Source of the DNA: Streptomyces sp. NBC_00250 | Lineage (GTDB): Bacteria > Actinomycetota > Actinomycetes > Streptomycetales > Streptomycetaceae | Length of the DNA stretch: 64,000 nt | Direction: 5' to 3' | Assembly (NCBI RefSeq): GCF_036192275.1 | Contig: NZ_CP108088.1 | Location: 8,294,001-8,358,000, forward strand | Part shown: positions 2,667-15,147 of the stretch, piece after piece | Layout of the letters: each line of letters begins with the position of its first letter | How positions within the stretch are numbered: the stretch's first letter is position 1 | Position numbers and translations under genes: made by a program | The notes under the pieces: generated by a model | The model's database searches: none | The model's input: only the letters and a program-made list of their open reading frames with translations | Told to the model about the DNA's origin: nothing

Positions 2667-3500
2667 ATGCGTTCCCTCGGGGTCAACACCTGGGTCTGGG
2701 CCTCACCGCTGACCGACGGGGGAGTGGAACGGCTCGCCCCTCGCATCGCCGAGTGGGGGTTCGACGTCATCGAGCTCCCGGTGGAGCAGCCGGGCGACTG
2801 GGACCCGGCCCGGGCCGCGGACCTGCTGGCCCGGCTGGGCCTGGCCGCCTCCGTGGTGCTCGTCATGCCGCCGGGCCGGGAACTGGTCGCCGCGCCCGCC
2901 GAGGTGGTCCGCGAGACCCAGGACTACCTGCGGCACTGCGTAGACGTCGCGGTGACCCTGGGCGCCCCCGCCATCAGCGGGCCGGCGTACGCCTCGGTCG
3001 GACGGACCTGGAAGCTCAACGGCGACGAGCGCAGGTCCGCCTACGCCGAACTGAGCGAGAACCTCAAGCCGGTGGTGGCCTACGCCGCCGACCGGGGGGT
3101 GCGGATCGGCGTGGAGCCGCTCAACCGCTACGAGACGAGCCTGATCAACACCGTTGAGCAGGCCCTGGAGGCGTTGCCCGAGGAATGCGGGCTCGCCCTC
3201 GACACCTATCACCTCAACATCGAGGAAAGGAGCCCGCTGCAGGCGATCCGGGACGCCGGATCCCGGATCGCACATCTCCAGGTGTGCGGGACGGACCGCG
3301 GAGCTCCCGGAGCCGACCACTTCGACTGGCCGGGTTTCGCCCTGGCCGTCGACGAGGCCGGCTACCGAGGCCCGCTGGTCATCGAGTCCTTCACCCCGGA
3401 CAACGCGACGATCGCGACCGCCGCCTCCGTGTGGCGGCCGCTGGCCGTGACCCAGGACGCCCTGGCCAAGGACGGCCTGGCGTTCCTTCGAACCCTCTGA
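2667..3500 (+). CDS. Sugar phosphate isomerase/epimerase (ketose 3-epimerase-like TIM barrel)
   Basis: A 277-residue cytoplasmic TIM-barrel protein of the xylose-isomerase-like superfamily, closest by eye to D-tagatose/D-psicose 3-epimerases. The segments VEPLNRYETSLINT (Glu150) and LDTYHLNIEE (Asp179) match metal-binding strands of that family, and Glu240 in PLVIESF matches the last ligand. Spacing places Gln205 (AHLQV) where the epimerases usually have a metal-binding His; hydroxypyruvate isomerases have Gln there, so activity is not excluded. The gene follows the binding protein without a gap and probably processes the imported sugar. Confidence 0.85.
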   Translation: MRSLGVNTWVWASPLTDGGVERLAPRIAEWGFDVIELPVEQPGDWDPARAADLLARLGLAASVVLVMPPGRELVAAPAEVVRETQDYLRHCVDVAVTLGAPAISGPAYASVGRTWKLNGDERRSAYAELSENLKPVVAYAADRGVRIGVEPLNRYETSLINTVEQALEALPEECGLALDTYHLNIEERSPLQAIRDAGSRIAHLQVCGTDRGAPGADHFDWPGFALAVDEAGYRGPLVIESFTPDNATIATAASVWRPLAVTQDALAKDGLAFLRTL

Positions 3501-3535
3501 GGCTGACTTTCCGCCCCCTACCAGGGAGACTTCCA

Positions 3536-6500
3536 GTGCATCGCTCACGCCTGAGCCGCGCGCTCTCGGTACTCACCGGGACGCTGTTGGCGCTGCTTCT
3601 CGTCCAGATACCAGCCCAACAGGCCTTCGCCGCACCGGCGTTCAAGGTGCTGCTGTTCACCAAGACGGCTGCCGGTGCCTTCCGGCACGGCTCCATCTCC
3701 GCCGGCACCACGATGTTCGAGCAGCTCGCCAAGGACAACAACTTCCAGCTCGACAAGAGCGAGGACTCCTCGATCTTCACTTCGTCGACGCTGAACACAT
3801 ACGACGCCGTCATCATGTTCCAGACCTCCGGGATGGTCTGGGACAACGACGCACAGCGCCAGGGCATGCAGAAGTACGTCCGTAGCGGCCGCGGCGTCGT
3901 CGCCGTCCACAACGCCACGGACATGAACATCGACTCTCAGTTCCCCTGGTGGGACGACACCGTCATGGGCGGCGCGCACATGACGGCGCACTCCACCATC
4001 CAGCAGGGAACCGCCAAGGTCGCCGACCGGGTGCACCCGTCCACCAAGGGCCTCCCGGAGAAGTGGGTGCGCTCCGAGGAGTGGTACAACTTCGACAAGA
4101 ACGCGCGTGGCAACGTCCACGTGCTCGTCACCGCGGACGAGACCACCTACGACGCGGGCGGCTCCAAGATGGGCGCCGACCACCCGATCTCCTGGTGCCG
4201 TGTCGCCGAGACCGGCAAGGTCTGGGCCACTGCGATGGGCCACGAAGCGTCCTCGTACTCCGACGCGAACTTCAAGAAGCACCTGCTCGGCGGCGTGAAG
4301 TGGGCCGCGGGCGCGGAGGCCGGAGACTGCGGCGGTACCGTCTCCAGCCGCTTCCAGAAGGTGACGCTCGACGGCGCGCCCGACCAGCCCATGGAGCTGG
4401 ACGTGGCATCCGACGGCAAGGTCTTCTACATCTCTCGCTCCGGGTCCGTGCACGTCATCCACGAACACGAGGGCGAGACGGAGACGCACACCGCGGGCAT
4501 CCTGGACGTCTACGACGGCGGTGAGGACGGCGGCATCGGTCTCGCACTGGACCCGAATTTCGCCACCAACCGCTTCATCTACCTCAACTACTCGCCCGCC
4601 GGCACGGCCGAGGTCAACCGGGTCTCCCGGTTCAAGGTCAACGCGAACGACACGCTGGACATGACCAGTGAGAAGAAGCTCATCGAGGTGCCGGCCTACC
4701 GCACCGTCGACGAGCCCGGCCACACCGGCGGCTACCTCGCCTTCGGCCCCGGCGGCAACCTGTACATCGGGACGGGCGACGACACCAACCCGTTCGCCTC
4801 GGACGGCTTCTCGCCGATCGACGAACGGCAGGGCCGCGAGCACTACGACGCTCAGCGCAGCTCTGCCAACACCAATGACCTTCGCGGCAAGCTCCTGCGG
4901 ATCCACCCCGAGGCCGACGGCACCTACACCATCCCGTCGGGCAACCTGTTCGCCCCCGGCACCGCCAAGACCCGGCCCGAGATCTACGCCATGGGCTTCC
5001 GCAACGGGTTCCGGTTCGCGGTCGACAAGGACACCGGCTGGATCTCCCTCGGCGACTACGGTCCCGACTCGCACGCGGCCAACCCCGACCGCGGCCCCGA
5101 GGGCACGGTCGAGTGGAACCTGATCAAGACGCCGGGCTTCTACGGGTGGCCGTACTGCACGGGCAACAACACGCCGTTCAACAACTACGACTTCACCACC
5201 CGCACTTCGGGGGCGAAGTTCGACTGCGCGGCCCCCGTGAACGACTCGCCGAACAACACCGGCCTGACCAAGCTGCCCGCGGCCAAGCCGGCGACGGTCT
5301 GGTACAACTACCACGAATCCAAGGAGTTCCCCGAGATAGCGACCGGCGGCGGCGGTGCCCCGATGGGCGGCCCCTTCTACCACTACGACGCGGCCAGCAC
5401 CTCGGAGCGCAAGTTCCCCCAGTACTACGACAAGACGCCGTTCTTCTACGAGTGGAGCCGCAACACCGTCAAGGAGTTCCGCCTCGACGCCAACGGCGGC
5501 CTGCTGAAGATCAACCCGCTGGTCGCGCAGATCGCCCCGCACGCGGCCATCGACATGAAGTTCGGCCCCGACGGAGCGATGTACCTCGCTGAATGGGGCC
5601 TCGGCTACGGCCACGCCAACACCGACGACGGCATCTACCGGATCGAATACGTCGCCGGCAACCGCACCCCGGTCGCCAAGGCATCCGCCACCCCGGACTC
5701 CGGCCAGGGACCGCTCCAGGTCACCTTCTCCGCCGCCGGCTCCGCCGACCCGGACGGTGACGCGCTCACCTACTCGTGGAACTTCGGCGACGGGTCCAGC
5801 TCCACAGCTCAGAACCCCACCCACACCTACACCGCCAACGGCGACTACACCGCGCGGCTGACGGTGAAGGACGCCGGCGGGAAGACCGGCACCACCAGCG
5901 TGCCCGTGGTCGTCGGCAACACCCGTCCCAAGGTCACGTTCACCGCGCCCGGCAACGGCGGGGTCATCGCGTTCGGCGACAAGATCAAGTACACGGTGAA
6001 GGTCACCGACCCCGAGGACGGCACCGTCGACTGCTCGAAGGTCGTCGTGACCGCGGCGCTGGGACACGACAGCCACAGCCACGACACCGGCCAGTTCACC
6101 GGGTGCTCGGGCGAGATCCAGACGACCGCCTCCGGTCACGATGCGGACGCGAACACGTTCTACGTCCTCTCCGCCGACTACACCGACAAGGGAGGCCTGC
6201 AGGGCACCACCACCGCCACCCTGCAGCCCCGGCACAAGCAGGCCGAGTACTTCACTGCTCAGTCCGGCGTGCGCATCGTCGAGCAGAGCGGCGCCGAGGG
6301 CGGCAAGCGCATCGGGGACATCTCCAACGGCGACTGGATCTCCTTCTCGCCGCTGAACCTGTCCGGCGTCACGTCGGTGTCGGTGCGGGCGTCTTCGCCC
6401 GCCGCCTCCGGCGGCTCCGTCGAACTGCGCGCGGGCTCGCCCACGGGCACGCTCATCGCCACCGTCCCGGTGACGAGCACCGGTGGATGGGACACCTACC

Positions 6501-7072
6501 AGACACTGCCGCCCGTCGCCGTGACCGACCCGGGCGGCACCCAGACCGTGTACGCCGTCTTCAAGGGCCGCACCGGGAGCGGGTTCGACCTGGACGCGCT
6601 CACCTTCCTCCGCGCGGGCGACAGCTCGTCCACCGGCCCGCAGGCCGGGAAGACGTACACCCTGACGAACGCCGGAAACAGCAAGGCCGTCGATGTGAGC
6701 AGGAGCTCCGCCACGGACGGCGCCGCGGTCGTCCAGTACACCGCCACCGGCAGCACCAACCAGAAGTGGAAGCTGACGGACGCCGGCAACGGCACATTCA
6801 CCCTGACCGCGCAGCACAGCGGCAAGTGCCTGGACGTCTACGGCCAGTCCAGCGCCGACGGCGCGAAGCTGATCCAGTGGGCCTGTCACACCGGCGCGAA
6901 CCAGAAGTGGAAGCTGGAGTCCGTCGGCACCGACACCTACCGGATCGTCTCGGTGGCCAGCGGCAAGTGCGTGGACGTTCCGAACCAGTCCACCGCGAAT
7001 GACGAGCAGCTGATCCAGTGGGCCTGCCACACCGGATCGAACCAGAAGTGGAAGCTCACCCAGGTGGGCTGA
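3536..7072 (+). CDS. Secreted ThuA / glucose-sorbosone dehydrogenase-like / PKD / CBM6 / ricin-type multidomain protein
   Basis: An 1178-residue exported protein. The GTG at 3536 has a GGGAGA ribosome site and starts a signal peptide (about residues 1-31 ending AFAAP). Domains in order: ThuA-like (32-260, FTKTAAGAFRHGSI), a six-blade beta-propeller of the glucose/sorbosone dehydrogenase (GSDH) type (about 265-695, with MGFRNGFRFAV and GPDGAMYLAEWG), PKD (708-793, YSWNFGDG), a linker domain, CBM6 (902-1028, QAEYFT...GDWISF) and a three-repeat ricin/CBM13 lectin (1038-1178, repeated NQKWKL). Family knowledge suggests PQQ-dependent oxidation of a sugar or glycan end outside the cell; substrate unknown. 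A paralogue lies at 17345-20770 and lacks the lectin. Confidence 0.9.
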   Translation: MHRSRLSRALSVLTGTLLALLLVQIPAQQAFAAPAFKVLLFTKTAAGAFRHGSISAGTTMFEQLAKDNNFQLDKSEDSSIFTSSTLNTYDAVIMFQTSGMVWDNDAQRQGMQKYVRSGRGVVAVHNATDMNIDSQFPWWDDTVMGGAHMTAHSTIQQGTAKVADRVHPSTKGLPEKWVRSEEWYNFDKNARGNVHVLVTADETTYDAGGSKMGADHPISWCRVAETGKVWATAMGHEASSYSDANFKKHLLGGVKWAAGAEAGDCGGTVSSRFQKVTLDGAPDQPMELDVASDGKVFYISRSGSVHVIHEHEGETETHTAGILDVYDGGEDGGIGLALDPNFATNRFIYLNYSPAGTAEVNRVSRFKVNANDTLDMTSEKKLIEVPAYRTVDEPGHTGGYLAFGPGGNLYIGTGDDTNPFASDGFSPIDERQGREHYDAQRSSANTNDLRGKLLRIHPEADGTYTIPSGNLFAPGTAKTRPEIYAMGFRNGFRFAVDKDTGWISLGDYGPDSHAANPDRGPEGTVEWNLIKTPGFYGWPYCTGNNTPFNNYDFTTRTSGAKFDCAAPVNDSPNNTGLTKLPAAKPATVWYNYHESKEFPEIATGGGGAPMGGPFYHYDAASTSERKFPQYYDKTPFFYEWSRNTVKEFRLDANGGLLKINPLVAQIAPHAAIDMKFGPDGAMYLAEWGLGYGHANTDDGIYRIEYVAGNRTPVAKASATPDSGQGPLQVTFSAAGSADPDGDALTYSWNFGDGSSSTAQNPTHTYTANGDYTARLTVKDAGGKTGTTSVPVVVGNTRPKVTFTAPGNGGVIAFGDKIKYTVKVTDPEDGTVDCSKVVVTAALGHDSHSHDTGQFTGCSGEIQTTASGHDADANTFYVLSADYTDKGGLQGTTTATLQPRHKQAEYFTAQSGVRIVEQSGAEGGKRIGDISNGDWISFSPLNLSGVTSVSVRASSPAASGGSVELRAGSPTGTLIATVPVTSTGGWDTYQTLPPVAVTDPGGTQTVYAVFKGRTGSGFDLDALTFLRAGDSSSTGPQAGKTYTLTNAGNSKAVDVSRSSATDGAAVVQYTATGSTNQKWKLTDAGNGTFTLTAQHSGKCLDVYGQSSADGAKLIQWACHTGANQKWKLESVGTDTYRIVSVASGKCVDVPNQSTANDEQLIQWACHTGSNQKWKLTQVG

Positions 7073-7246: not shown

Positions 7247-8275
7247 ATGAATCGTCCGATCACCCTGTTCACCGGCCAATGGGCGGACCTCCCCTTCGAG
7301 GAGGTGTGCCGGCTCGCCTCCCAATGGGGGTACGACGGCCTCGAAATCGCTTGCTGGGGCGACCACTTCGCAGTCGACCGCGCCCTTGCGGAACCCGACT
7401 ACGTGGTGAGCAAGCGGGCGGTCCTGGCCCAGTACGGATTGGACGTCTGGGCCATCTCCAACCACCTCGTGGGCCAGGCCGTCTGCGACCACCCCATCGA
7501 CACCCGCCACCAGCTGATCCTGCCCGCCCGGCTCTGGGACGAGAACCCGGAACAGGTCCGCCGGAACGCGGCCCGCGAGATGCAGGACACGGCCAGAGCC
7601 GCCGCCCTGCTCGGCGTCGACACGGTGGTGGGTTTCACCGGTTCGTCGATCTGGCATACCGTCGCGATGTTCCCTCCCGTCCCGCCCGCCGCCATCGAGG
7701 ACGGCTACCGCGACTTCGCCGAACGCTGGCACCCCATCCTCGACGTGTTCGAGGAGCAGGGCGTACGGTTCGCGCTGGAGGTCCATCCCAGCGAGATCGC
7801 CTACGACTTCTGGACGACTCGGCGCACCCTGGAGGCCATCGGCCACCGCTGGTCCTTCGGGCTGAACTGGGACCCGTCCCACATGATCTGGCAGGACATC
7901 GATCCGGTGGACTTCATCCTGGAGTTCGGCGACCGGATCTACCACGCCGACTGCAAGGACACCCGGGTCCGCGCCCGCGACGGCCGCCGCGGCCGGCTCT
8001 CCTCTCACCTGCCCTGGGGGGACCCGCGCCGCGGCTGGGATTTCGTCTCCACCGGCCACGGAGACGTCCCCTGGGAGGACTGCATCCGCGCGCTGAACAC
8101 CATCGGATACCGCGGCCCACTCTCCGTGGAATGGGAGGACGCCGGCATGGACCGCCTGACCGGCGCCGCCGAAGCACTTGGTTTCCTGCAGGAGCTGTCC
8201 CGCATAGCCCCCCCGGCCACCGCCTTCGACGCCGCATTCGCAAGCCAGTCCGCAGAAGGAGACGGCCATGAGTGA
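7247..8275 (+). CDS. Sugar phosphate isomerase/epimerase (TIM barrel), first gene of Ebo-type cluster
   Basis: A 342-residue xylose-isomerase-like TIM-barrel protein. Candidate metal ligands are all present: Glu in FALEVHPSE, Asp in [10 protein letters not shown], His in IYHADCKD and Glu in SVEWEDAG. The long insert between strands, with CWGDHFAVD near the N-terminus, is typical of large epimerases in inositol and sugar catabolism (known family). No signal peptide is seen, so it is cytoplasmic. Its last codons overlap the start of the inositol-phosphate-synthase-like gene (8268), making it the first member of the overlapping run to 15147. The reaction is unknown. Confidence 0.87.
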
Positions 8276-9455
8276 CACCCCCTCCCGGAACACCGGCCGG
8301 ACCGGCGTATGGCTCGTCGGAGCCCGCGGTTCGGTCGCCACGACCGCAGTCGTCGGCGCCGCCGCGGTCAGCGGCGGATTCGTCCCCCCTACCGGCATGG
8401 TCTCCCAGCTGGCGGAGTTCGCCCACAGCGGCCTGCCCGCCCTGGAGGACCTGGTGTTCGGCGGACACGACGTCACGGACACCCCGCTCTCCAAGCGGGC
8501 CGAGCAGCTGGCCGAGGCCGGCGTCTTCCCCGCCACACTCCTCCCCCTCGTCGCCGACGCGCTCCAGGCGGCCGACGCGGAGATCAGGACCGGTACGACC
8601 GGCGGACCGGGAGGCCCCACGCAAGCCGAAACCGCGGCCTCCCTCATCGATGACCTGACCTCCTTCCGGCAACGCCACCGGCTCGGCCAGGTCGTGGTCG
8701 TCGACGTCTCCTCGACGGAACCCCTGCCCGTCCCCCGTCCCGCCCACGAGAAGCTCGACACACTGGAGCAGGCTCTGGCCTCCGGAGACGCAGAGCTCCC
8801 GCCGAGCTCCCTCTACGCCTACGCCGCCCTGCGCGCCGGATGCGGCCACGTCGGCTTCACCCCCTCGCCGGGAATGCGGCTGCCCGCGCTGCGCCGGCTC
8901 GCCGAAGCGCAGGGCCTGCCCTACGCGGGCTGCGACGCCAAGACCGGCGAAACCCTGATCCGCACCGCACTCGCGCCAGCGTTCGCCCACCGCGCCCTGC
9001 GTGTGCGGTCCTGGTCCGGTACGAACCTGCTCGGCGGCGGAGACGGCGCCACCCTCGCCGACCCGGCCGCCGCGGCCAGCAAGAACGCCTCCAAGCGCAG
9101 CGGTCTCGACGCCCTGCTCGGCGAGCGGGTGGAAGGACTCACCCACATCGACAACGTGCCGAGCATGGGGGAGCGGAAGACCGCCTGGGACCACGTCGAC
9201 TTCCAGGGCTTCCTCGGCGCGCCGATGACCCTGCAGTTCACCTGGCAGGGCTGGGACTCGGCCCTGGCCGCACCCCTCGTCCTCGACCTCGTCCGGTTCC
9301 TCGCCCGGGCCCGCCAGGCGGGCGCCTCCGGACCGCAGCGACAGCTCGGCTTCTTCTTCAAGGACCCGATCGCGCACGACCGCATCGCTCCCGACCACCG
9401 GCTCGTCATCCAGTTCGAAGAGCTCCGCGCCTGGTACGCCGGAGTCGTCCGATGA
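8268..9455 (+). CDS. Inositol-3-phosphate synthase-like protein
   Basis: A 395-residue protein of the myo-inositol-1-phosphate synthase family. It has an N-terminal NAD-binding motif ([14 protein letters not shown]) and the conserved stretch [15 protein letters not shown] region ([15 protein letters not shown]), followed by [18 protein letters not shown] and [10 protein letters not shown]. Authentic synthases cyclise glucose-6-phosphate to inositol-3-phosphate using NAD. This member may act on another sugar phosphate, since genome maintenance copies are usually elsewhere. It overlaps genes on both sides (8 bp upstream, ATGA downstream). In other Ebo clusters a dehydroquinate-synthase-like cyclase is present; this gene may fill that role (inference). 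Confidence 0.88.
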
Positions 9456-10321
9456 CCGGCCTGCGCGCCCTGCTGGAACTGGTTCGTGCCCCCGCAGCGC
9501 TCACCGTCCCGGGCGACACCCTGGCCGGGGCCACTGCCGCCGGCCGGCCGCTCGGCGCCGAAACCGCCGGGCTCGCGGCGGCCTCCGTCTGCCTGTACTG
9601 GGCCGGAATGGCGCTGAACGACTGGGCCGATCGGGAGGTCGACGCCGAGGAGCGGCCCGGCCGCCCCCTTCCCTCCGGCCGGATCAGCCCCGGTACCGCA
9701 CTGGGCGCCGCCGCCGCACTCACCGGCGCCGGCCTGGCATTGGCCGCGGCGGCAGGGGGGCGGCGGCACCTTGGCATCGCCGTGCCGCTCGCCGCCACCG
9801 TGTGGGCGTACGACCTGGCCGTCAAGGAGACCCCGTTCGGGCCGGCCGCCATGGCGGCCGCCCGCGGGCTCGACGTACTCATGGGCGCGGGCCCCGACCA
9901 GTGGCGCAGCGCGCTGCCCGCGGCCCTCACGATCGGCTGCCACACCTACACACTCACCTTGGTGAGCCGGCGGGAGGTCGAGGGGGCGACTGCGGGGCTG
10001 CCCGCAGCGGCCCTGGGGGCCTCCACCGCCCTGGCGCTGGTCACCTCCGCCTTCCCCGCAAGCGGCACGGAACCCGTCCACCGTGCCGCATCGACCGTGC
10101 TGTTGGCCGCCTACCTCGCTGCAGGGGGCCCGGCACAGCTGGCCGCGACCGCCCGCCCGGATCCTCCCCGCCTCCGGCGGGCGGTCGCTTCCGGCATCCA
10201 CGCCCTGATCCCGCTCCAGGCGGCGCTGACCGCACGCGCGGGCAACGTGGGCGCCGCCCTGCCGCTGATGGCCGCGTTCCCGCTGGCCCGGCGGCTGTCG
10301 CGAAAGGTGTCCCCGACATGA
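9452..10321 (+). CDS. eboC: UbiA-type prenyltransferase (SCO3242-like, EboC role)
   Basis: A 289-residue polytopic membrane protein of the UbiA superfamily. The first Asp-rich motif is visible as LNDWADREVDAEERPGRPL (NDxxDxxxD), followed by Pro-rich GRISPG. The second conserved region is YDLAVKETPFGPAAM...ARGLDVLMG. At least seven hydrophobic segments follow. UbiA enzymes transfer a prenyl chain to an acceptor at the membrane. By content and neighbours it matches the SCO3242-family prenyltransferases of streptomycetes and the EboC position of Ebo clusters. ATGA overlaps with both neighbours indicate translational coupling. Acceptor and prenyl donor are unknown. Confidence 0.88.
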   Translation: MTGLRALLELVRAPAALTVPGDTLAGATAAGRPLGAETAGLAAASVCLYWAGMALNDWADREVDAEERPGRPLPSGRISPGTALGAAAALTGAGLALAAAAGGRRHLGIAVPLAATVWAYDLAVKETPFGPAAMAAARGLDVLMGAGPDQWRSALPAALTIGCHTYTLTLVSRREVEGATAGLPAAALGASTALALVTSAFPASGTEPVHRAASTVLLAAYLAAGGPAQLAATARPDPPRLRRAVASGIHALIPLQAALTARAGNVGAALPLMAAFPLARRLSRKVSPT

Positions 10322-11715
10322 CCGCGCTGCGCTTCGGCTACGGCACCAACGGCTTCGCCAACCACCGTCTCGACGACGCCCTGGAGGTCATCGCCGGGCT
10401 GGGGTACTCCGGGGTGGCACTCACCCTGGACCACGGCCACCTCGACCCGTACGCTCCCGGCCTCGCCCGGCAGCTGACCCGGGTGCACCGCAAGCTCTCC
10501 GCGCTCGGCCTCGGCGCGGTAGTGGAGACCGGCGGCCGCTACCTCCTCGACCCGTGGCACAAGCACGCACCCACCCTGCTGGACCCGGAGCCCGAACGGC
10601 GCGCCCACCGCCTGGACTTCCTCACCCGTGCCGTGCACATCGCCTCGGAACTGGGGGCCGAGGCGGTGTCGCTGTGGAGCGGGATACCCGACCCGGGAAT
10701 GCCCGGGGAGGAGGCGTGGGAGCTGCTCGTCGACGGCTGCGCCGCCCTGACCGAGGTGGCGCGGCAGTCCGGCGTACGGCTCGGATTCGAACCCGAGCCG
10801 GGCATGCTGGTCGCCGACCTGGACGGCTACGAGCGCCTCCGGAACGCGCTCGGCGGCCCGCACGCCTTCGGCCTCACCCTGGACGTCGGGCACTGCCGCT
10901 GCCTGGAGGACGACAGCCCGGCCGACTGTGTCCGGCGCGCCGCCCCCTGGTTGGTCAACGTCCAGATCGAGGACATGCGGCGCGGCGTCCACGAACACCT
11001 GCAGTTCGGCGAGGGCGAGGTCGACTTCCCCTCGGTGCTGCAGGCACTGACGGAGACCGGCTACCGCGGACTCGTGGCCGTAGAGCTGCCCCGCCACTCG
11101 CACAGTGCCCCGCAGACCGCGTTGCACTCGCTGGACGCCCTGCGCGCGGCTTCCGCACCGCCGTGGACGATCAAGGCACTCGATCAGCTGGAGTCCGACT
11201 CTGCAGCGATCACCCGGCTCTTCCCGGTGGCCGCGCGGAGCGTCGGCCCCGACCCCGGACTCGGCGAGGCGACGCGGATCCAACTGCTCCAAGCCCTGCC
11301 CGGCGCCGGAGCCGAACTCGCCGCCGTCCTCAAGGAGCTGTACGAGCGAGGGGACACGGCCGAGCGGACCGCCGTGCTGCGCGCCCTGCCCCTGCTCGAC
11401 CGGGCCGGACGGATCGGGGCGCATGCCAAGGGCCTGGTCGAGGACGCACTGCGGACCAACGACGCCCGGCTCGTCACCGCGGCGGCCGGACCGTACGCCG
11501 CCCGCCGCCTCGACCAGGAGCAGTGGCGGCAGGCCGTGCTGAAGTGCGTGTTCCTCGGCGTGCCCTTGGACGCCGTGGCGGGCCTGGCCCGCCGCCGCGA
11601 TCCCGAACTGGACCGCATGTTCGCGGCCTTCGCTGCCGAACGCATCGCCGCCGGGCGGCGCGTCCCCGACGATGTTCGCCGGCAGCTGCAGCTCGATCAG
11701 GACCTCCCCGTATGA
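10318..11715 (+). CDS. TIM-barrel isomerase fused to a C-terminal EboA domain
   Basis: A 465-residue two-domain protein. Residues 1 to about 275 are a xylose-isomerase-like TIM barrel (FGYGTNGFANHRL at the start; Glu in RLGFEPEPGML, Asp in TLDVGHCRCL, Gln in NVQIEDMRRG and Glu in VAVELPRHSH as candidate metal ligands). Residues about 285-465 match EboA, a helical domain of unknown function (LLQALPGAGAELAAVL, LKCVFLGVPLDAVAGL). In many Ebo clusters EboA is a separate protein, so the fusion ties the barrel enzyme physically to the Ebo system. ATGA overlaps occur at the 5' end and next to the downstream gene. Confidence 0.87.
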   Translation: MTALRFGYGTNGFANHRLDDALEVIAGLGYSGVALTLDHGHLDPYAPGLARQLTRVHRKLSALGLGAVVETGGRYLLDPWHKHAPTLLDPEPERRAHRLDFLTRAVHIASELGAEAVSLWSGIPDPGMPGEEAWELLVDGCAALTEVARQSGVRLGFEPEPGMLVADLDGYERLRNALGGPHAFGLTLDVGHCRCLEDDSPADCVRRAAPWLVNVQIEDMRRGVHEHLQFGEGEVDFPSVLQALTETGYRGLVAVELPRHSHSAPQTALHSLDALRAASAPPWTIKALDQLESDSAAITRLFPVAARSVGPDPGLGEATRIQLLQALPGAGAELAAVLKELYERGDTAERTAVLRALPLLDRAGRIGAHAKGLVEDALRTNDARLVTAAAGPYAARRLDQEQWRQAVLKCVFLGVPLDAVAGLARRRDPELDRMFAAFAAERIAAGRRVPDDVRRQLQLDQDLPV

Positions 11716-11729
11716 CAGGAGCCCGCGCC

Positions 11730-12596
11730 ATGCGCATCTTCGACCCCCACATCCACATGACCTCCCGGACGACCGACGACTACCGGGCGATGCACGCGGC
11801 CGGCGTACGGGCCCTCGTCGAGCCGGCGTTCTGGCTCGGCCAGCCCCGCACATCGGTCGGCAGCTTCATCGACTACTTCGACGCCCTGTTGGGCTGGGAG
11901 CCGTACCGCGCCGCCCAGTACGGGATCCAGCACTTCTGTGCCCTCGCCCTCAACCCCAAGGAAGCCAACGACGAGCGGTGCGCGCCGGTCCTCGACGAGT
12001 TGCCCCGGTACCTGCTCAAGGACCGTGTCGTGGCAGTCGGCGAGATCGGCTTCGACTCGATGACCGAAGCCGAGGAGCGGGCGTTCACGGTCCAGCTCGG
12101 CCTCGCCAAGGAGTTCGGCCTCCCGGCCCTGGTGCACACCCCGCACCGCGACAAGGCCGTGGGAACCGCCCGCACCCTCGAGCTCGTGAATGCGTCCGGC
12201 ATCGGACCCGGCAGGGTCCTGGTCGACCACCTCAACGAGGTGACCGCGCCGCTCGTCGCCGACTCCGGCTGCTGGATGGGCTTCTCCATCTACCCCGACA
12301 CCAAGATGACCCCGGACCGCATGGTGCGCATCCTCCAGGATCACGGCACCTCCCGCGTGCTGGTCAACTCGGCTGCCGACTGGGGTCACAGCGACCCGCT
12401 GCTGACCTTCGTCACCGCCTCCGCCATGCGCGCCGCCGGCTTCACCGAGAACGACGTTGACCAGGTGCTCTGGCGCAACCCGGTGGAGTTCTACGCACAG
12501 AGCGGGCGGCTCACGCTGGAGGGCGTGTCCGAGGGGGGCTGCCCGTCGGACACCTCGGAGTACGCCGGCAACTCCGTACGCAGGGGCGGCAACTGA
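11730..12596 (+). CDS. eboB: TatD-family metal-dependent hydrolase (EboB-like)
   Basis: A 288-residue amidohydrolase-superfamily protein. The metal site is visible: HxH in FDPHIHMTS at the N-terminus, Glu in VGEIGFDSM, His in ALVHTPHRD, His in LVDHLNEV and Asp in NSAADWGHSD. TatD proteins are deoxyribonucleases or hydrolases, but Ebo-cluster members have no established substrate. I chose ATG 11730 because AGGAG ends nine bases upstream and the family consensus starts at MRIFDPH. The ATG at 11712, which overlaps the previous stop as ATGA, would add six residues and is also plausible. The stop overlaps the next start (TGATG). Confidence 0.88.
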   Translation: MRIFDPHIHMTSRTTDDYRAMHAAGVRALVEPAFWLGQPRTSVGSFIDYFDALLGWEPYRAAQYGIQHFCALALNPKEANDERCAPVLDELPRYLLKDRVVAVGEIGFDSMTEAEERAFTVQLGLAKEFGLPALVHTPHRDKAVGTARTLELVNASGIGPGRVLVDHLNEVTAPLVADSGCWMGFSIYPDTKMTPDRMVRILQDHGTSRVLVNSAADWGHSDPLLTFVTASAMRAAGFTENDVDQVLWRNPVEFYAQSGRLTLEGVSEGGCPSDTSEYAGNSVRRGGN

Positions 12597-13783
12597 TGAG
12601 GTTCCGTCACGGCAGTGGCGAGGATGTCCACCTCGGCTACTGCACCAACGTGCACCCTGCCGAAGACCTCGCCGGGATCCTGGACCAGCTCGACACCTAC
12701 GCGGTCCCCGTCCGGGAGCAGCTGGCAGCGGACCGGCTGGGAGTCGGCCTGTGGCTCGCTCAGCCCGTCGCCTCCGTCCTGGCCGGTGATCCCGGTGCCA
12801 CGCTCCGGTTCCGCGCCGAACTCGACCGGCGCGGGCTGGAGGTGGTCACCCTCAACGGCTTCCCCTACCAAGGCTTCCACGAGCCGGTGGTCAAGGGCGC
12901 GGTCTACCGGCCCGACTGGTCCTCGCAGCTGCGGCTGGAGCTCACGGCCGACCTCGCGCGGGTGCTCGCCCTGCTGTTGCCCGACGACGTCCCGACCGGT
13001 TCCATCTCCACCCTCCCGTTCGGCTGGCGCGCCGACTGGACCCCGGAGCGCCATCTTCGGGCCCTGCGGAACCTGGACGAACTCGGGCGCAGGCTCGAGG
13101 GCATCCGCCACCACACCGGCCGCACGATCAGGGTCGCTCTGGAGCCGGAGCCCGGCTGTGTCGTGGAGACGACCGGCCAGGCCGCCCATCATCTGAGCCA
13201 TCTGGACCCGGAGTATTTCGGCGTCTGCCTCGACGTGTGCCATCTCGCCGTCGCCTTCGAGGACCCATACGCGGCCCTGCGGGAGCTGGACCGGGCCGGG
13301 TTGGGCGTCGTCAAGGCGCAGCTGTCCTGTGCCCTGCACGCCGAACGGCCGGCCGACCCGGACGTCCGCCGGGCGCTGGCCGCTTTCACCGAACCCCGGT
13401 TCCTCCACCAGACCCGGCGAGCCGGGGTACCTCGCACCGGGGTCGACGACCTGCCCCAGGCGCTGGCCGGTCCTCTGGCGATGGACCGCGACGCACCCTG
13501 GCGCTCCCACTTCCACGTCCCCCTGCACGCCGACCCCGAGCCGCCGCTGACCAGCACACGGCCGGTACTGCTGCGAGCCCTCGCCGCGTTGCTCGCCACC
13601 GACCGGCCCGGCACCACGCACCTGGAGGTCGAGACGTACACCTGGTCGGTTCTGCCCTCCCCGCCGCGCACCGCGAAGGAACTGGCCGCGGGCATCGCCG
13701 CCGAACTCGACTGGACCCGCCGGGAGCTGCTCACCCTGGGCCTCACCGAGGCGCCCCTCTCCGCCGTGAAAAGGAGTTCGTGA
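12596..13783 (+). CDS. eboE: EboE-like metabolite traffic protein (TIM barrel)
   Basis: A 395-residue protein with the EboE signature start GYCTNVHPAEDL and the segment TLNGFPYQGFHEPVVKGAVY, a xylose-isomerase-like barrel. Candidate metal ligands are Glu in ALEPEPGCVVET and Asp in VCLDVCHLAVAFE; SHFHVPLHAD and THLEVETYTWSVLP near the end are also conserved in the family. EboE is named for involvement in moving a metabolite in cyanobacterial scytonemin clusters, but no activity is firmly assigned. The TGATG overlap upstream and TGATG overlap downstream place it in the middle of a polycistronic unit. Confidence 0.9.
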   Translation: MRFRHGSGEDVHLGYCTNVHPAEDLAGILDQLDTYAVPVREQLAADRLGVGLWLAQPVASVLAGDPGATLRFRAELDRRGLEVVTLNGFPYQGFHEPVVKGAVYRPDWSSQLRLELTADLARVLALLLPDDVPTGSISTLPFGWRADWTPERHLRALRNLDELGRRLEGIRHHTGRTIRVALEPEPGCVVETTGQAAHHLSHLDPEYFGVCLDVCHLAVAFEDPYAALRELDRAGLGVVKAQLSCALHAERPADPDVRRALAAFTEPRFLHQTRRAGVPRTGVDDLPQALAGPLAMDRDAPWRSHFHVPLHADPEPPLTSTRPVLLRALAALLATDRPGTTHLEVETYTWSVLPSPPRTAKELAAGIAAELDWTRRELLTLGLTEAPLSAVKRSS

Positions 13784-15147
13784 TGAGTGTCGTGGTCCTC
13801 GATGTCGTCGGGCTCACCCCGCGCGCGCTCGCTGACATGCCCCGCCTGAGTGCGGTCGCCGACGCCGGCTTCAGCGCCGAGCTGGAGACGGTCCTTCCCG
13901 CGGTCACCTGCTCGGTACAGTCCACCTTCCTGACCGGCGAACTGCCGTCCGGGCACGGGATCGTCGGCAACGGCTGGTACGACCGGGACATGGGCGAGGT
14001 CGCGTTCTGGCGCCAGCACAACCGACTGGTCGGCGGCGAGAAGCTCTGGCAGACCGCCCGGCGGACCCGGCCCGACCTGACGGTGGCCAACATCTGCTGG
14101 TGGTACGCGATGGGCGCCGACGTGGACGTCACCATCACCCCGCGTCCGGTGTACCACTACGACGGCCGCAAGTCCCCCGACTGCTACACGAACCCGCCGG
14201 AACTCCGGGACGCCCTGACGGCCGAACTGGGCGTCTTCCCGCTGTTCGACTACTGGGGACCCAGGGCCGGTCTCGCGTCCACGCGGTGGATCGTCGACGC
14301 CGCCCGGCGGGTCGTCGACCGGTATGACCCGGACCTCACGCTCGTCTACGTACCGCACCTCGACTACGACCTGCAACGCCACGGCCCGGACTCGGCACAG
14401 GCGCGGAAGGCCGCCCGTGACCTCGACGAGGTCCTGGGCCCCTTCCTCGACGAGACCCTCGCCCGGGGCGCGACGGTCGTGGCCCTGAGCGAGTACGGCA
14501 TCACCGAGGTGCGCCGCCCCGTCGACATCAACCGGGCCCTGCGCCGGGCGGGGCTGCTCAACGTGCACGTGCAGCAGGGCATGGAGTACCTCGACCCGTG
14601 GACCTCCCGGGCGTTCGCCACCGCGGACCACCAGATCGCCCACGTCTACGTGGCCGACCCGGCGGACGTGCCGCGCGTACACGAGGTGCTCCGCGAGCTC
14701 GACGGCATCGAGGAGGTCCTGGACCGCTCGGGACAGGCCGAACACGGCCTCGACCACGCCCGGTCCGGCGAGCTCGTCGCCATTGCCGCCCCCGACAGCT
14801 GGTTCACGTACTACTACTGGCTGGACGACGGGCACGCCCCGGACTTCGCCCGCGGCGTGGACATCCACCGCAAGCCGGGGTACGACCCGGCGGAGCTGTT
14901 CTTCGACCCTGGTGATCCACTCGTCATGGCACGCGCCGCCGTTGCCCTGGCCAAGCTGAAGCTCGGCATCCGCGGCACCATGTCCGTCGTGCCGACCGAC
15001 CCCGGATGCGTCCGCGGCAGCCACGGCCGCCTCCCCGTGAATGCCGAAGACGCTCCCGTCCTGCTGTGCTCCGCTCCCGACCAGGCCCGCGCGCGCTTCC
15101 ACGCCACCGAAGTCAAGCAGTTCCTGCTGTCCTGTCTTTCCCGTTGA
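13783..15147 (+). CDS. eboF: Type I phosphodiesterase / alkaline phosphatase superfamily protein (EboF-like)
   Basis: A 454-residue protein of the nucleotide pyrophosphatase/phosphodiesterase branch of the alkaline phosphatase superfamily. The nucleophile motif PAVTCSVQSTFLTG (Thr near residue 43), YVPHLDYDLQRHG with metal-binding Asp/His, and ALSEYGITEV are visible. It has no clear signal peptide, so the reaction is probably cytoplasmic or at the inner membrane face. A strong AAAGGAG ribosome site lies at 13770-13776 and the start overlaps the EboE stop (TGATG). It is the last gene of the cluster and is followed by a hairpin. Likely role: hydrolysis of a phosphate ester of the cluster metabolite (inference). 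Confidence 0.88.
   Translation: MSVVVLDVVGLTPRALADMPRLSAVADAGFSAELETVLPAVTCSVQSTFLTGELPSGHGIVGNGWYDRDMGEVAFWRQHNRLVGGEKLWQTARRTRPDLTVANICWWYAMGADVDVTITPRPVYHYDGRKSPDCYTNPPELRDALTAELGVFPLFDYWGPRAGLASTRWIVDAARRVVDRYDPDLTLVYVPHLDYDLQRHGPDSAQARKAARDLDEVLGPFLDETLARGATVVALSEYGITEVRRPVDINRALRRAGLLNVHVQQGMEYLDPWTSRAFATADHQIAHVYVADPADVPRVHEVLRELDGIEEVLDRSGQAEHGLDHARSGELVAIAAPDSWFTYYYWLDDGHAPDFARGVDIHRKPGYDPAELFFDPGDPLVMARAAVALAKLKLGIRGTMSVVPTDPGCVRGSHGRLPVNAEDAPVLLCSAPDQARARFHATEVKQFLLSCLSR

What the first reader, a model, noticed from the sequence alone, without database searches (positions are those of the whole stretch)
7247..15147. Ebo-type cluster with an inositol-phosphate-synthase homologue instead of eboD
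Seven genes overlap or nearly touch and contain recognisable EboA (fused), EboB, EboC, EboE and EboF members. Ebo clusters are known from cyanobacterial scytonemin loci and other bacteria and are thought to traffic or modify a metabolite, often with a dehydroquinate-synthase-like EboD. Here no EboD is present, but a myo-inositol-3-phosphate synthase homologue sits next to the prenyltransferase. Both EboD-like and inositol synthases are NAD-dependent sugar-phosphate cyclases, so the cluster may make a prenylated or membrane-anchored cyclitol or cyclised sugar. The swap is inference from gene content.
Basis: partly seen in the sequence, partly recalled or inferred. Interest (0 to 1): 0.8.

Follow-up and report, generated by a model that had tools for sequence, protein, structure and literature searches.

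The report
Ebo cluster using an inositol synthase
A widespread but poorly understood bacterial gene cluster (ebo), thought to build a lipid-linked ring sugar, here carries an inositol-synthase-type enzyme in place of its usual ring-forming enzyme, which gives a concrete clue to what the cluster may make.

Summary
Window 7247-15147 is a tight seven-gene operon: TIM barrel, MIPS homologue, UbiA prenyltransferase, TIM-EboA fusion, EboB, EboE, EboF. The genome has a second such cluster with its own MIPS; its housekeeping INO1 is a third gene, 23% identical. The EboD model passes its cut-off in 0 of 394 actinomycete genomes, EboE in 90 of 394. Of 139 core-complete actinomycete loci, 133 have MIPS. 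Of 11 non-actinobacterial ebo plasmids, 6 have EboD only, 4 MIPS only, 1 neither. MIPS-type clusters also occur in Gemmatirosa and haloarchaea; trees reject a single origin. Catalytic residues are kept. MIPS travels with an isomerase (TIM2), so a two-gene module stands in for EboD. Secreted ThuA-GSDH proteins and a 2-hydroxy-3-keto-glucal-hydratase-like gene flank many MIPS-type clusters. The prenylated cyclitol product remains inference. Verdict: a real, widespread variant of ebo; no paper describing the swap was found in the held library.

The parts
3185..7072 (+). Multidomain protein ThuA + GSDH + PKD + CBM6 + ricin-B lectin, probably secreted; flanking partner
   Evidence: Pfam; holds one of 5 GSDH domains of the genome, 3 of which flank the two ebo clusters. 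Secretion is inferred from the domains
7247..8275 (+). TIM1: xylose-isomerase-like TIM barrel, 2-hydroxy-3-keto-glucal hydratase-like; overlaps MIPS by 8 bp
   Evidence: PF01261 145 bits; PDB 2zds 541 bits and 8ro4 E 3.4e-37; overlap
8268..9455 (+). MIPS homologue, the cyclase standing where EboD is missing
   Evidence: PF07994 and PF01658; closest PDB chain A. fulgidus Ino1 1u1i E 1.1e-68; catalytic residues kept; tree
9452..10321 (+). EboC-position UbiA prenyltransferase (SCO3242 family)
   Evidence: NF045897 389 bits over cut-off 260; EboC model NF035940 125 bits, below cut-off 250
10318..11715 (+). TIM2-EboA fusion
   Evidence: PF01261 126 bits; NF035938 159 bits
11730..12596 (+). EboB, TatD-like metallohydrolase (start 11712 also possible)
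   Evidence: PF01026 43 bits; H9, E105, H136, H167, D217 invariant in 40 EboB rows, H7 nearly so
12596..13783 (+). EboE
   Evidence: NF035939 427 bits, cut-off 250
13783..15147 (+). EboF, type I phosphodiesterase / nucleotide pyrophosphatase family
   Evidence: PF01663 212 bits
15971..17050 (-). LacI-family regulator, candidate regulator of the locus (start approximate)
   Evidence: LacI 46.5 bits and Peripla_BP_3 101 bits
17345..20770 (+). Second ThuA-GSDH-CBM6-PKD protein
   Evidence: Pfam

Best explanation
This is a MIPS-type variant of the ebo cluster. The canonical sugar-phosphate cyclase EboD is replaced by an archaeal-like myo-inositol-phosphate synthase working with a partner isomerase (TIM2). 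The likely route: MIPS oxidises and cyclises a hexose phosphate, probably glucose 6-phosphate, to an inositol phosphate; TIM2 and EboE isomerise, epimerise or dehydrate the ring; EboF removes or rearranges a phosphate; EboC attaches a prenyl chain at the membrane; EboB hydrolyses an intermediate; EboA scaffolds. The product would be a lipid-linked cyclitol. Shown: gene content, no co-occurrence with EboD, kept catalytic residues, recurrence in several lineages. Inferred: the reactions, their order and the product.
For: Operon structure. Second MIPS-type cluster in the same genome. MIPS in 133 of 139 core-complete actinomycete loci with at least 5.2 kb upstream (57 of 60 and 76 of 79), with the order MIPS-EboC-TIM2-EboA-EboB-EboE-EboF in 52 of 57 and 71 of 76. 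EboD model over cut-off in 0 of 394 genomes, with positive controls at 532-594 bits. 11 non-actinobacterial ebo plasmids: 6 EboD only, 4 MIPS only, 1 neither, 0 both. N255, K274, K278, K306, D332 and K367 (A. fulgidus numbering) in 146-147 of 147 ebo-context MIPS, the odd cells being one X and two gaps. All ebo MIPS as one clade rejected, p-AU 1.1e-5; EboB of MIPS-type and actinobacterial clusters as one clade rejected, p-AU 3.4e-46, with MIPS-type Gemmatirosa beside EboD-type Deinococcus at 100/100. TIM2 in 57 of 57 and 73 of 76 MIPS loci, and no TIM2 call in six EboD-type loci. Yurchenko et al. argued for an isoprenoid-cyclitol product of canonical ebo (PMC5133447 section 21).
Against: The only ebo enzyme activity seen in the papers read is farnesylation of quinolines by EboC homologues (PMC9235831 abstract), which is not a cyclitol. 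MIPS keeps its phosphate and is expected to use a hexose phosphate, unlike EboD-type cyclases, so the two products cannot be identical. The prenyltransferase falls below the EboC model cut-off. Six core-complete actinomycete loci have no MIPS hit: L077, L099, L104, L128, L141, L182; L242 from another class has none either. Haladaptatus has the haloarchaeal core with neither cyclase on its plasmid. Ketogulonicigenium, EboD-type, has a sugar isomerase of another kind beside its cluster. Actinobacterial ebo MIPS carry G at A. fulgidus position 259, where the other rows have N or D, so the substrate may not be glucose 6-phosphate.
Confidence: 0.62

Rival explanations
1. The cluster makes a membrane-bound or diffusible cyclitol-derived redox cofactor or electron mediator for secreted beta-propeller dehydrogenases, the GSDH proteins here, rather than a secreted end product.
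For: ThuA-GSDH hits lie in 47 of 52 and 43 of 73 core loci with at least 8.5 kb on both sides. In the own genome 3 of 5 GSDH domains flank the two ebo clusters (P about 2e-6 under uniform placement, region chosen after the fact). Natronococcus L245 has a GSDH-cupredoxin protein beside its MIPS-type cluster. PqqE passes its cut-off in 4 of 45 genomes with GSDH in the ebo locus. Some UbiA-family enzymes make quinones (recalled). Klicki et al. considered a cofactor role (PMC6282210 section 6).
Against: [quoted passage not shown] 5 of 52 and 30 of 73 loci have no ThuA-GSDH hit in range. No ThuA-GSDH hit in the six EboD-type loci, though a DUF7133 protein lies near Ketogulonicigenium ebo. PQQ may be scavenged and GSDH domains may not need it. 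The PqqE search scored at most five candidates per genome.
Confidence: 0.15
2. The cluster supports translocation of a small molecule across the membrane (lipid carrier), as proposed for scytonemin; MIPS only changes the head group.
For: Each Nostoc ebo deletion made accumulates scytonemin monomer in the cytoplasm; eboD was not tested (PMC6282210 sections 6 and 8 and passages).
Against: None of the seven window genes is a transporter; no lipid conjugate was seen in Nostoc. Compatible with the best explanation rather than exclusive.
Confidence: 0.15
3. MIPS simply feeds free inositol or inositol phosphate into a neighbouring sugar-catabolic locus (LacI, sugar-binding protein, TIM1, ThuA-GSDH), and the ebo genes are not chemically linked to it.
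For: LacI regulator and sugar-binding protein flank the operon; TIM1 overlaps MIPS by 8 bp.
Against: EboC follows MIPS within 800 bp in 127 of the 133 MIPS loci, while TIM1 is in only 38 of 52 and 32 of 73 loci; the exclusion with EboD would be unexplained.
Confidence: 0.05
4. The MIPS homologue has drifted to another cyclisation (other sugar phosphate or ring size), as five-membered cyclitol phosphate synthase has. This is a sub-case of the swap and not exclusive with it.
For: G at position 259 in all 143 actinobacterial ebo MIPS examined; a five-membered cyclitol phosphate synthase, 6k96, is a relative in PDB.
Against: The window protein is far closer to A. fulgidus Ino1 (E 1.1e-68) than to 6k96 (E 3.1e-12).
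Confidence: 0.25

Closest known systems
Canonical ebo operon (eboABCDEF; Bacteroidetes, Cyanobacteria and others; EDB cluster of P. fluorescens)
   Same: EboA, EboB, EboE and EboF members plus a UbiA prenyltransferase in one tight operon
   Different: No EboD; MIPS plus TIM2 instead; prenyltransferase of the SCO3242 family, below the EboC model cut-off
Archaeal-type myo-inositol-1-phosphate synthase (A. fulgidus Ino1, 1u1i)
   Same: 41% identity, same family by sequence, catalytic residues kept
   Different: G instead of D at position 259; sits in ebo context
Mycothiol INO1, the genome's own housekeeping inositol-3-phosphate synthase (L010)
   Same: Same Pfam family
   Different: 23% identity to the window protein; TIGR03450 734 bits for L010 against 36 for the window protein
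SCO3242-SCO3243 of S. coelicolor (putative transferase and myo-inositol phosphate synthase)
   Same: The window prenyltransferase belongs to the SCO3242 family
   Different: Listed among CDA-cluster genes in a transcriptome paper (PMC3610822, two passages), not called ebo in those passages; locus not fetched here

Membership tests
ebo operon | EboA domain | tested here: met
   NF035938 159 bits, cut-off 50
ebo operon | EboB metallohydrolase | tested here: met
   PF01026 43 bits, cut-off 27; 53 and 56% identity to EboB of Azospirillum and Mycetohabitans
ebo operon | EboC UbiA prenyltransferase | tested here: inconclusive
   UbiA-type, but NF035940 125 bits under cut-off 250; SCO3242 family 389 bits instead. 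EboC of L220-L223, EboD-type, also miss the EboC cut-off (4 of 4), that of L256 meets it
ebo operon | EboD sugar phosphate cyclase | tested here: not met
   Absent from the cluster; best match in the genome 212 bits, cut-off 333
ebo operon | EboE | tested here: met
   NF035939 427 bits, cut-off 250
ebo operon | EboF | tested here: met
   PF01663 212 bits, cut-off 23; 50.6-53.4% identity to the EboF of Deinococcus, Azospirillum, Ketogulonicigenium and Mycetohabitans rows listed
ebo operon | Role in metabolite export or synthesis | not testable with these tools
   Needs mutants or metabolomics
MIPS family | NAD_binding_5 and Inos-1-P_synth domains over cut-off | tested here: met
   164 bits (cut-off 25) and 104 bits (cut-off 27)
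MIPS family | Catalytic residues of A. fulgidus Ino1 | tested here: met
   Window N253, K272, K276, K304, D330, K365 align to N255, K274, K278, K306, D332, K367; that these are catalytic is partly recalled
MIPS family | Cyclises glucose 6-phosphate | not testable with these tools
   Needs enzyme assay
Mycothiol INO1 (TIGR03450) | Model score over 638 bits | tested here: not met
   36 bits

The most novel reading that the evidence does not exclude
Ebo clusters of both types build a membrane-anchored cyclitol cofactor that serves oxidation outside the cytoplasm. In the MIPS type its clients are the ThuA-GSDH sugar dehydrogenases, which in 41 of 45 genomes examined stand without a PqqE over cut-off; in the EboD type the clients are oxidative enzymes such as the periplasmic scytonemin enzyme ScyE. 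The cyclase module (EboD, or MIPS plus TIM2) is exchangeable because only the head group changes.
Probability: 0.12. Interest if true: 0.88.

Novelty: new variant of a known kind. Interest (0 to 1): 0.64.

Why it matters
The chemistry of ebo has been open since it was named in 2016. Replacement of EboD, whose substrate is only conjectured, by a family with a well-understood reaction turns the question into testable predictions: label from glucose or inositol should enter the product, and a prenylated inositol derivative should vanish in MIPS and EboC deletions. The variant is common: 90 of 394 actinomycete genomes carry an EboE over cut-off, and 79 of 83 genomes with a core ebo cluster in the fetched regions have MIPS in it. 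It also occurs in haloarchaea and in Gemmatirosa. Repeated exchange of unrelated cyclases on one core is itself of interest.

Tried and rejected
Housekeeping role of the window MIPS: rejected. EboD elsewhere in the genome: the 380-aa DHQS-like gene at C1:9016266 scores 212 bits against the EboD cut-off of 333 and lies about 0.7 Mb away; the other strong DHQ_synthase hit, at C1:7394751, I take for aroB (not scanned against NCBIfam). Single origin of MIPS-type clusters: rejected for MIPS and for EboB, although actinobacteria plus Gemmatirosa as one MIPS clade is not rejected (p-AU 0.108).

A mistake and its correction: I mixed flipped and original coordinates for minus-strand loci and took a Gfo/Idh gene in L128 for the gene upstream of EboC. 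Searches show a FAD amine-oxidase-like gene there and in L141; Gfo/Idh lies upstream of EboC in L182. Note 4 numbers some window MIPS residues one off; the numbers here were recounted.

Rows set aside: core loci with less than 5.2 kb upstream of EboE (19 of 79 and 8 of 87); loci without EboB and EboF nearby (1 of 80, 6 of 93); four loci of below-cut-off EboE-like hits, fetched but not counted (L216-L219); MIPS hits of under about 280 aligned residues; in the MIPS tree, 35 of 143 actinobacterial rows kept and L254 dropped, and L010 and L253 dropped for the clade tests. L168, L199, L202, L213 and L215 hold an EboE with no other ebo hit. The EboB clade test counted four actinobacterial rows without MIPS and Haladaptatus, also without MIPS on its plasmid, on the MIPS side. 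The TIM2 profile is broad: it also scored TIM1 of Gemmatirosa at 251 bits, so the haloarchaeal barrels (154-189 bits) are only TIM2-like. One paper search for ThuA with GSDH and 3-keto in Streptomyces, one for 3-keto-glucal terms and one for ThuA/ThuB listed no paper that I took to be about these loci (listings only).

Not run: structure prediction. The machine was busy.
Full report
What is there. Window 7247-15147 (G000:C1:8301247-8309147) holds seven + strand genes whose junctions overlap by 1-8 bp or leave 14 bp: TIM1, MIPS, UbiA prenyltransferase, TIM2-EboA fusion, EboB, EboE, EboF. The host is a 9.27-Mb genome; 73 of the 80 best named loci for its EboE are titled Streptomyces, so the host is most likely one. 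Upstream is a ThuA-GSDH-PKD-CBM6-ricin protein; downstream are a LacI regulator and a second ThuA-GSDH protein.

A second copy. An EboA-domain search found a second EboA at C1:1865837. The region (L009) carries TIM1 (cut by the locus edge), a ThuA-GSDH-DUF1080 protein, MIPS, UbiA, TIM2, EboA, EboB, EboE, EboF and a further TIM barrel. The shared proteins are 54-71% identical to those of the window, the ThuA-GSDH protein 39-51%. Both clusters of this genome are MIPS-type.

Not the housekeeping synthase. The genome has three MIPS homologues. The one at C1:4667550 scores 734 bits to the mycothiol INO1 model (cut-off 638); the window protein scores 36 and is 23% identical to it. The window protein is 41% identical to A. 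fulgidus Ino1 and 56% to the L009 copy.

No EboD. The NCBIfam model NF004852, which EboD proteins match at 532-594 bits, passes its cut-off in 0 of 394 actinomycete genomes, against 90 of 394 for EboE. That search scored at most four candidates per genome.

How general. From 80 named loci and 93 regions of class genomes, 60 and 79 are core-complete with at least 5.2 kb upstream; 57 and 76 of them have MIPS, in the order MIPS-EboC-TIM2-EboA-EboB-EboE-EboF in 52 and 71. The 80 named loci are the best hits to the window EboE, so this set leans to Streptomyces; the class set was drawn evenly. The six exceptions are L077 (two interleaved clusters, possibly an assembly join), L099, L104, L128, L141 and L182; the genomes of L128 and L141 each have a second cluster with MIPS (L142, L155). 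Of five regions from other classes of the phylum, four are MIPS-type and one, L242, has neither cyclase.

Beyond actinobacteria. I fetched 11 of the 21 non-actinobacterial plasmids with an EboB hit, one per genus for 11 genera. Azospirillum, Ketogulonicigenium, Mycetohabitans, Deinococcus, Aureibacter and Gloeothece (the last with only EboB and EboD in the locus) have EboD and no MIPS; Gemmatirosa, Halocatena, Halobaculum and Natronococcus have MIPS and no EboD; Haladaptatus has neither on that plasmid. The other ten of the 21 (Salipiger, Roseivivax and further strains of genera above) appear among the EboD hits of 52-100% identity in the list, and none appears in the full MIPS list. So of 21, 16 have EboD, 4 MIPS, 1 neither, 0 both. 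Only the plasmids were searched, not the chromosomes of these organisms. The haloarchaeal clusters show no EboA hit and have two TIM2-like barrels instead of a clear EboE.

More than one exchange. Actinobacterial ebo MIPS form one clade (100/99). Ebo MIPS of all three groups as one clade is rejected (p-AU 1.1e-5), as is actinobacteria plus haloarchaea (4.8e-7); actinobacteria plus Gemmatirosa is not (0.108). In the EboB tree MIPS-type Gemmatirosa pairs with EboD-type Deinococcus (100/100), and holding actinobacterial, haloarchaeal and Gemmatirosa EboB together is rejected (3.4e-46). The rows are few outside actinobacteria, the haloarchaeal MIPS lie among other haloarchaeal MIPS, and the direction of exchange is not shown.

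The swap is a module. TIM2 accompanies MIPS in 57 of 57 and 73 of 76 loci, in Gemmatirosa, and in Roseomonas, Hymenobacter and Methylobacterium clusters that are not ebo; it was called in none of six EboD-type loci. The TIM2 profile is broad, see Tried and rejected. MIPS plus TIM2 looks like a portable cyclitol module.

Chemistry. The residues changed to alanine in A. fulgidus Ino1 chains 3qvw, 3qvx and 3qw2 (K278, K367, N255, read from the alignments), and K274, K306 and D332, are kept in 146-147 of 147 ebo-context MIPS (the roles are recalled). Position 259 is G in all 143 actinobacterial ones and N or D in the other rows, a hint of altered specificity. All 152 EboC of sufficient length keep NDxxDxxxD. 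EboB keeps candidate TatD-like metal ligands (H9, E105, H136, H167, D217 invariant in 40 rows; ligand roles recalled).

Neighbourhood. TIM1's named structural relative is 2-hydroxy-3-keto-glucal hydratase (8ro4, E 3.4e-37), and the L009 neighbour protein carries a 3-keto-disaccharide hydrolase domain. ThuA-GSDH hits are in 47 of 52 and 43 of 73 core loci with 8.5 kb on both sides; TIM1 in 38 and 32. In the own genome 3 of 5 GSDH domains flank the two clusters. PqqE passes its cut-off in 10 of 394 genomes, in 7 of 83 with a core ebo cluster and in 4 of 45 with GSDH in the ebo locus (at most five candidates scored per genome). This suggests a link to extracellular 3-keto-sugar chemistry and leaves open what cofactor these GSDH domains use.

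What is known. Yurchenko et al. 2016 named ebo, placed EboD in the sugar phosphate cyclase superfamily, proposed an isoprenoid-cyclitol and noted actinobacterial EboA fusions (PMC5133447: abstract, first part of section 12, sections 16, 18, 21 and passages); the word inositol does not occur in its main text. They also reported an eboD-less operon in Leeuwenhoekiella and no eboD in two of three Planctomycetes. Klicki et al. 2018 showed that ebo deletions trap scytonemin monomer in the cytoplasm (PMC6282210: abstract, first part of section 6, section 8, passages). Amiri Moghaddam et al. 2022 showed farnesylation of quinolines by EboC homologues and compared Saccharomonospora clusters (PMC9235831: abstract and section 5); whether those have EboD or MIPS was not checked here. 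A search of ebo terms with inositol and one of inositol-3-phosphate synthase with UbiA, EboA and TatD listed no paper that describes the swap; further ebo papers were seen only as listings. The library holds open PMC papers only.

Verdict. A real and common variant of ebo in which an inositol-synthase module stands in for EboD. The exchange is well supported; the product and its use are inference.

Noticed in passing
L247, L248, L250: MIPS plus TIM2-type isomerase outside ebo in Roseomonas, Hymenobacter and Methylobacterium; with Gfo/Idh/MocA oxidoreductase and YcaO-like protein in the two annotated ones.
   Followed up: partly
L223, L255, L256: EboD-type clusters of Mycetohabitans, Gloeothece and Aureibacter lie beside a ferritin-like protein (PF12902 tested in L256, annotated in the others) and a protein of 587-675 aa; the two of these scanned (L223, L255) have no Pfam hit.
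   Followed up: partly
G000:C1:9015708-9016820 (L011): A DHQS-like sugar phosphate cyclase below the aroB and EboD model cut-offs, function open.
   Followed up: partly
L246, L257: Halomarina plasmid MIPS close to the haloarchaeal ebo MIPS; the annotated one (L246) sits near glycosyltransferase genes, L257 is unannotated.
   Followed up: partly
L245:12568-15231: Natronococcus GSDH protein with a plastocyanin-like copper domain beside a MIPS-type ebo cluster.
   Followed up: no
L222:1-2083: Ketogulonicigenium ebo cluster lies a few kb from a DUF7133 dehydrogenase and a c-type cytochrome.
   Followed up: no
L216-L219: Truncated EboE-like proteins with no ebo neighbours found, next to a ClpC-like ATPase in the two scanned (L216, L217).
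   Followed up: no
L077:7079-16866: Two interleaved ebo clusters, possibly an assembly join.
   Followed up: no
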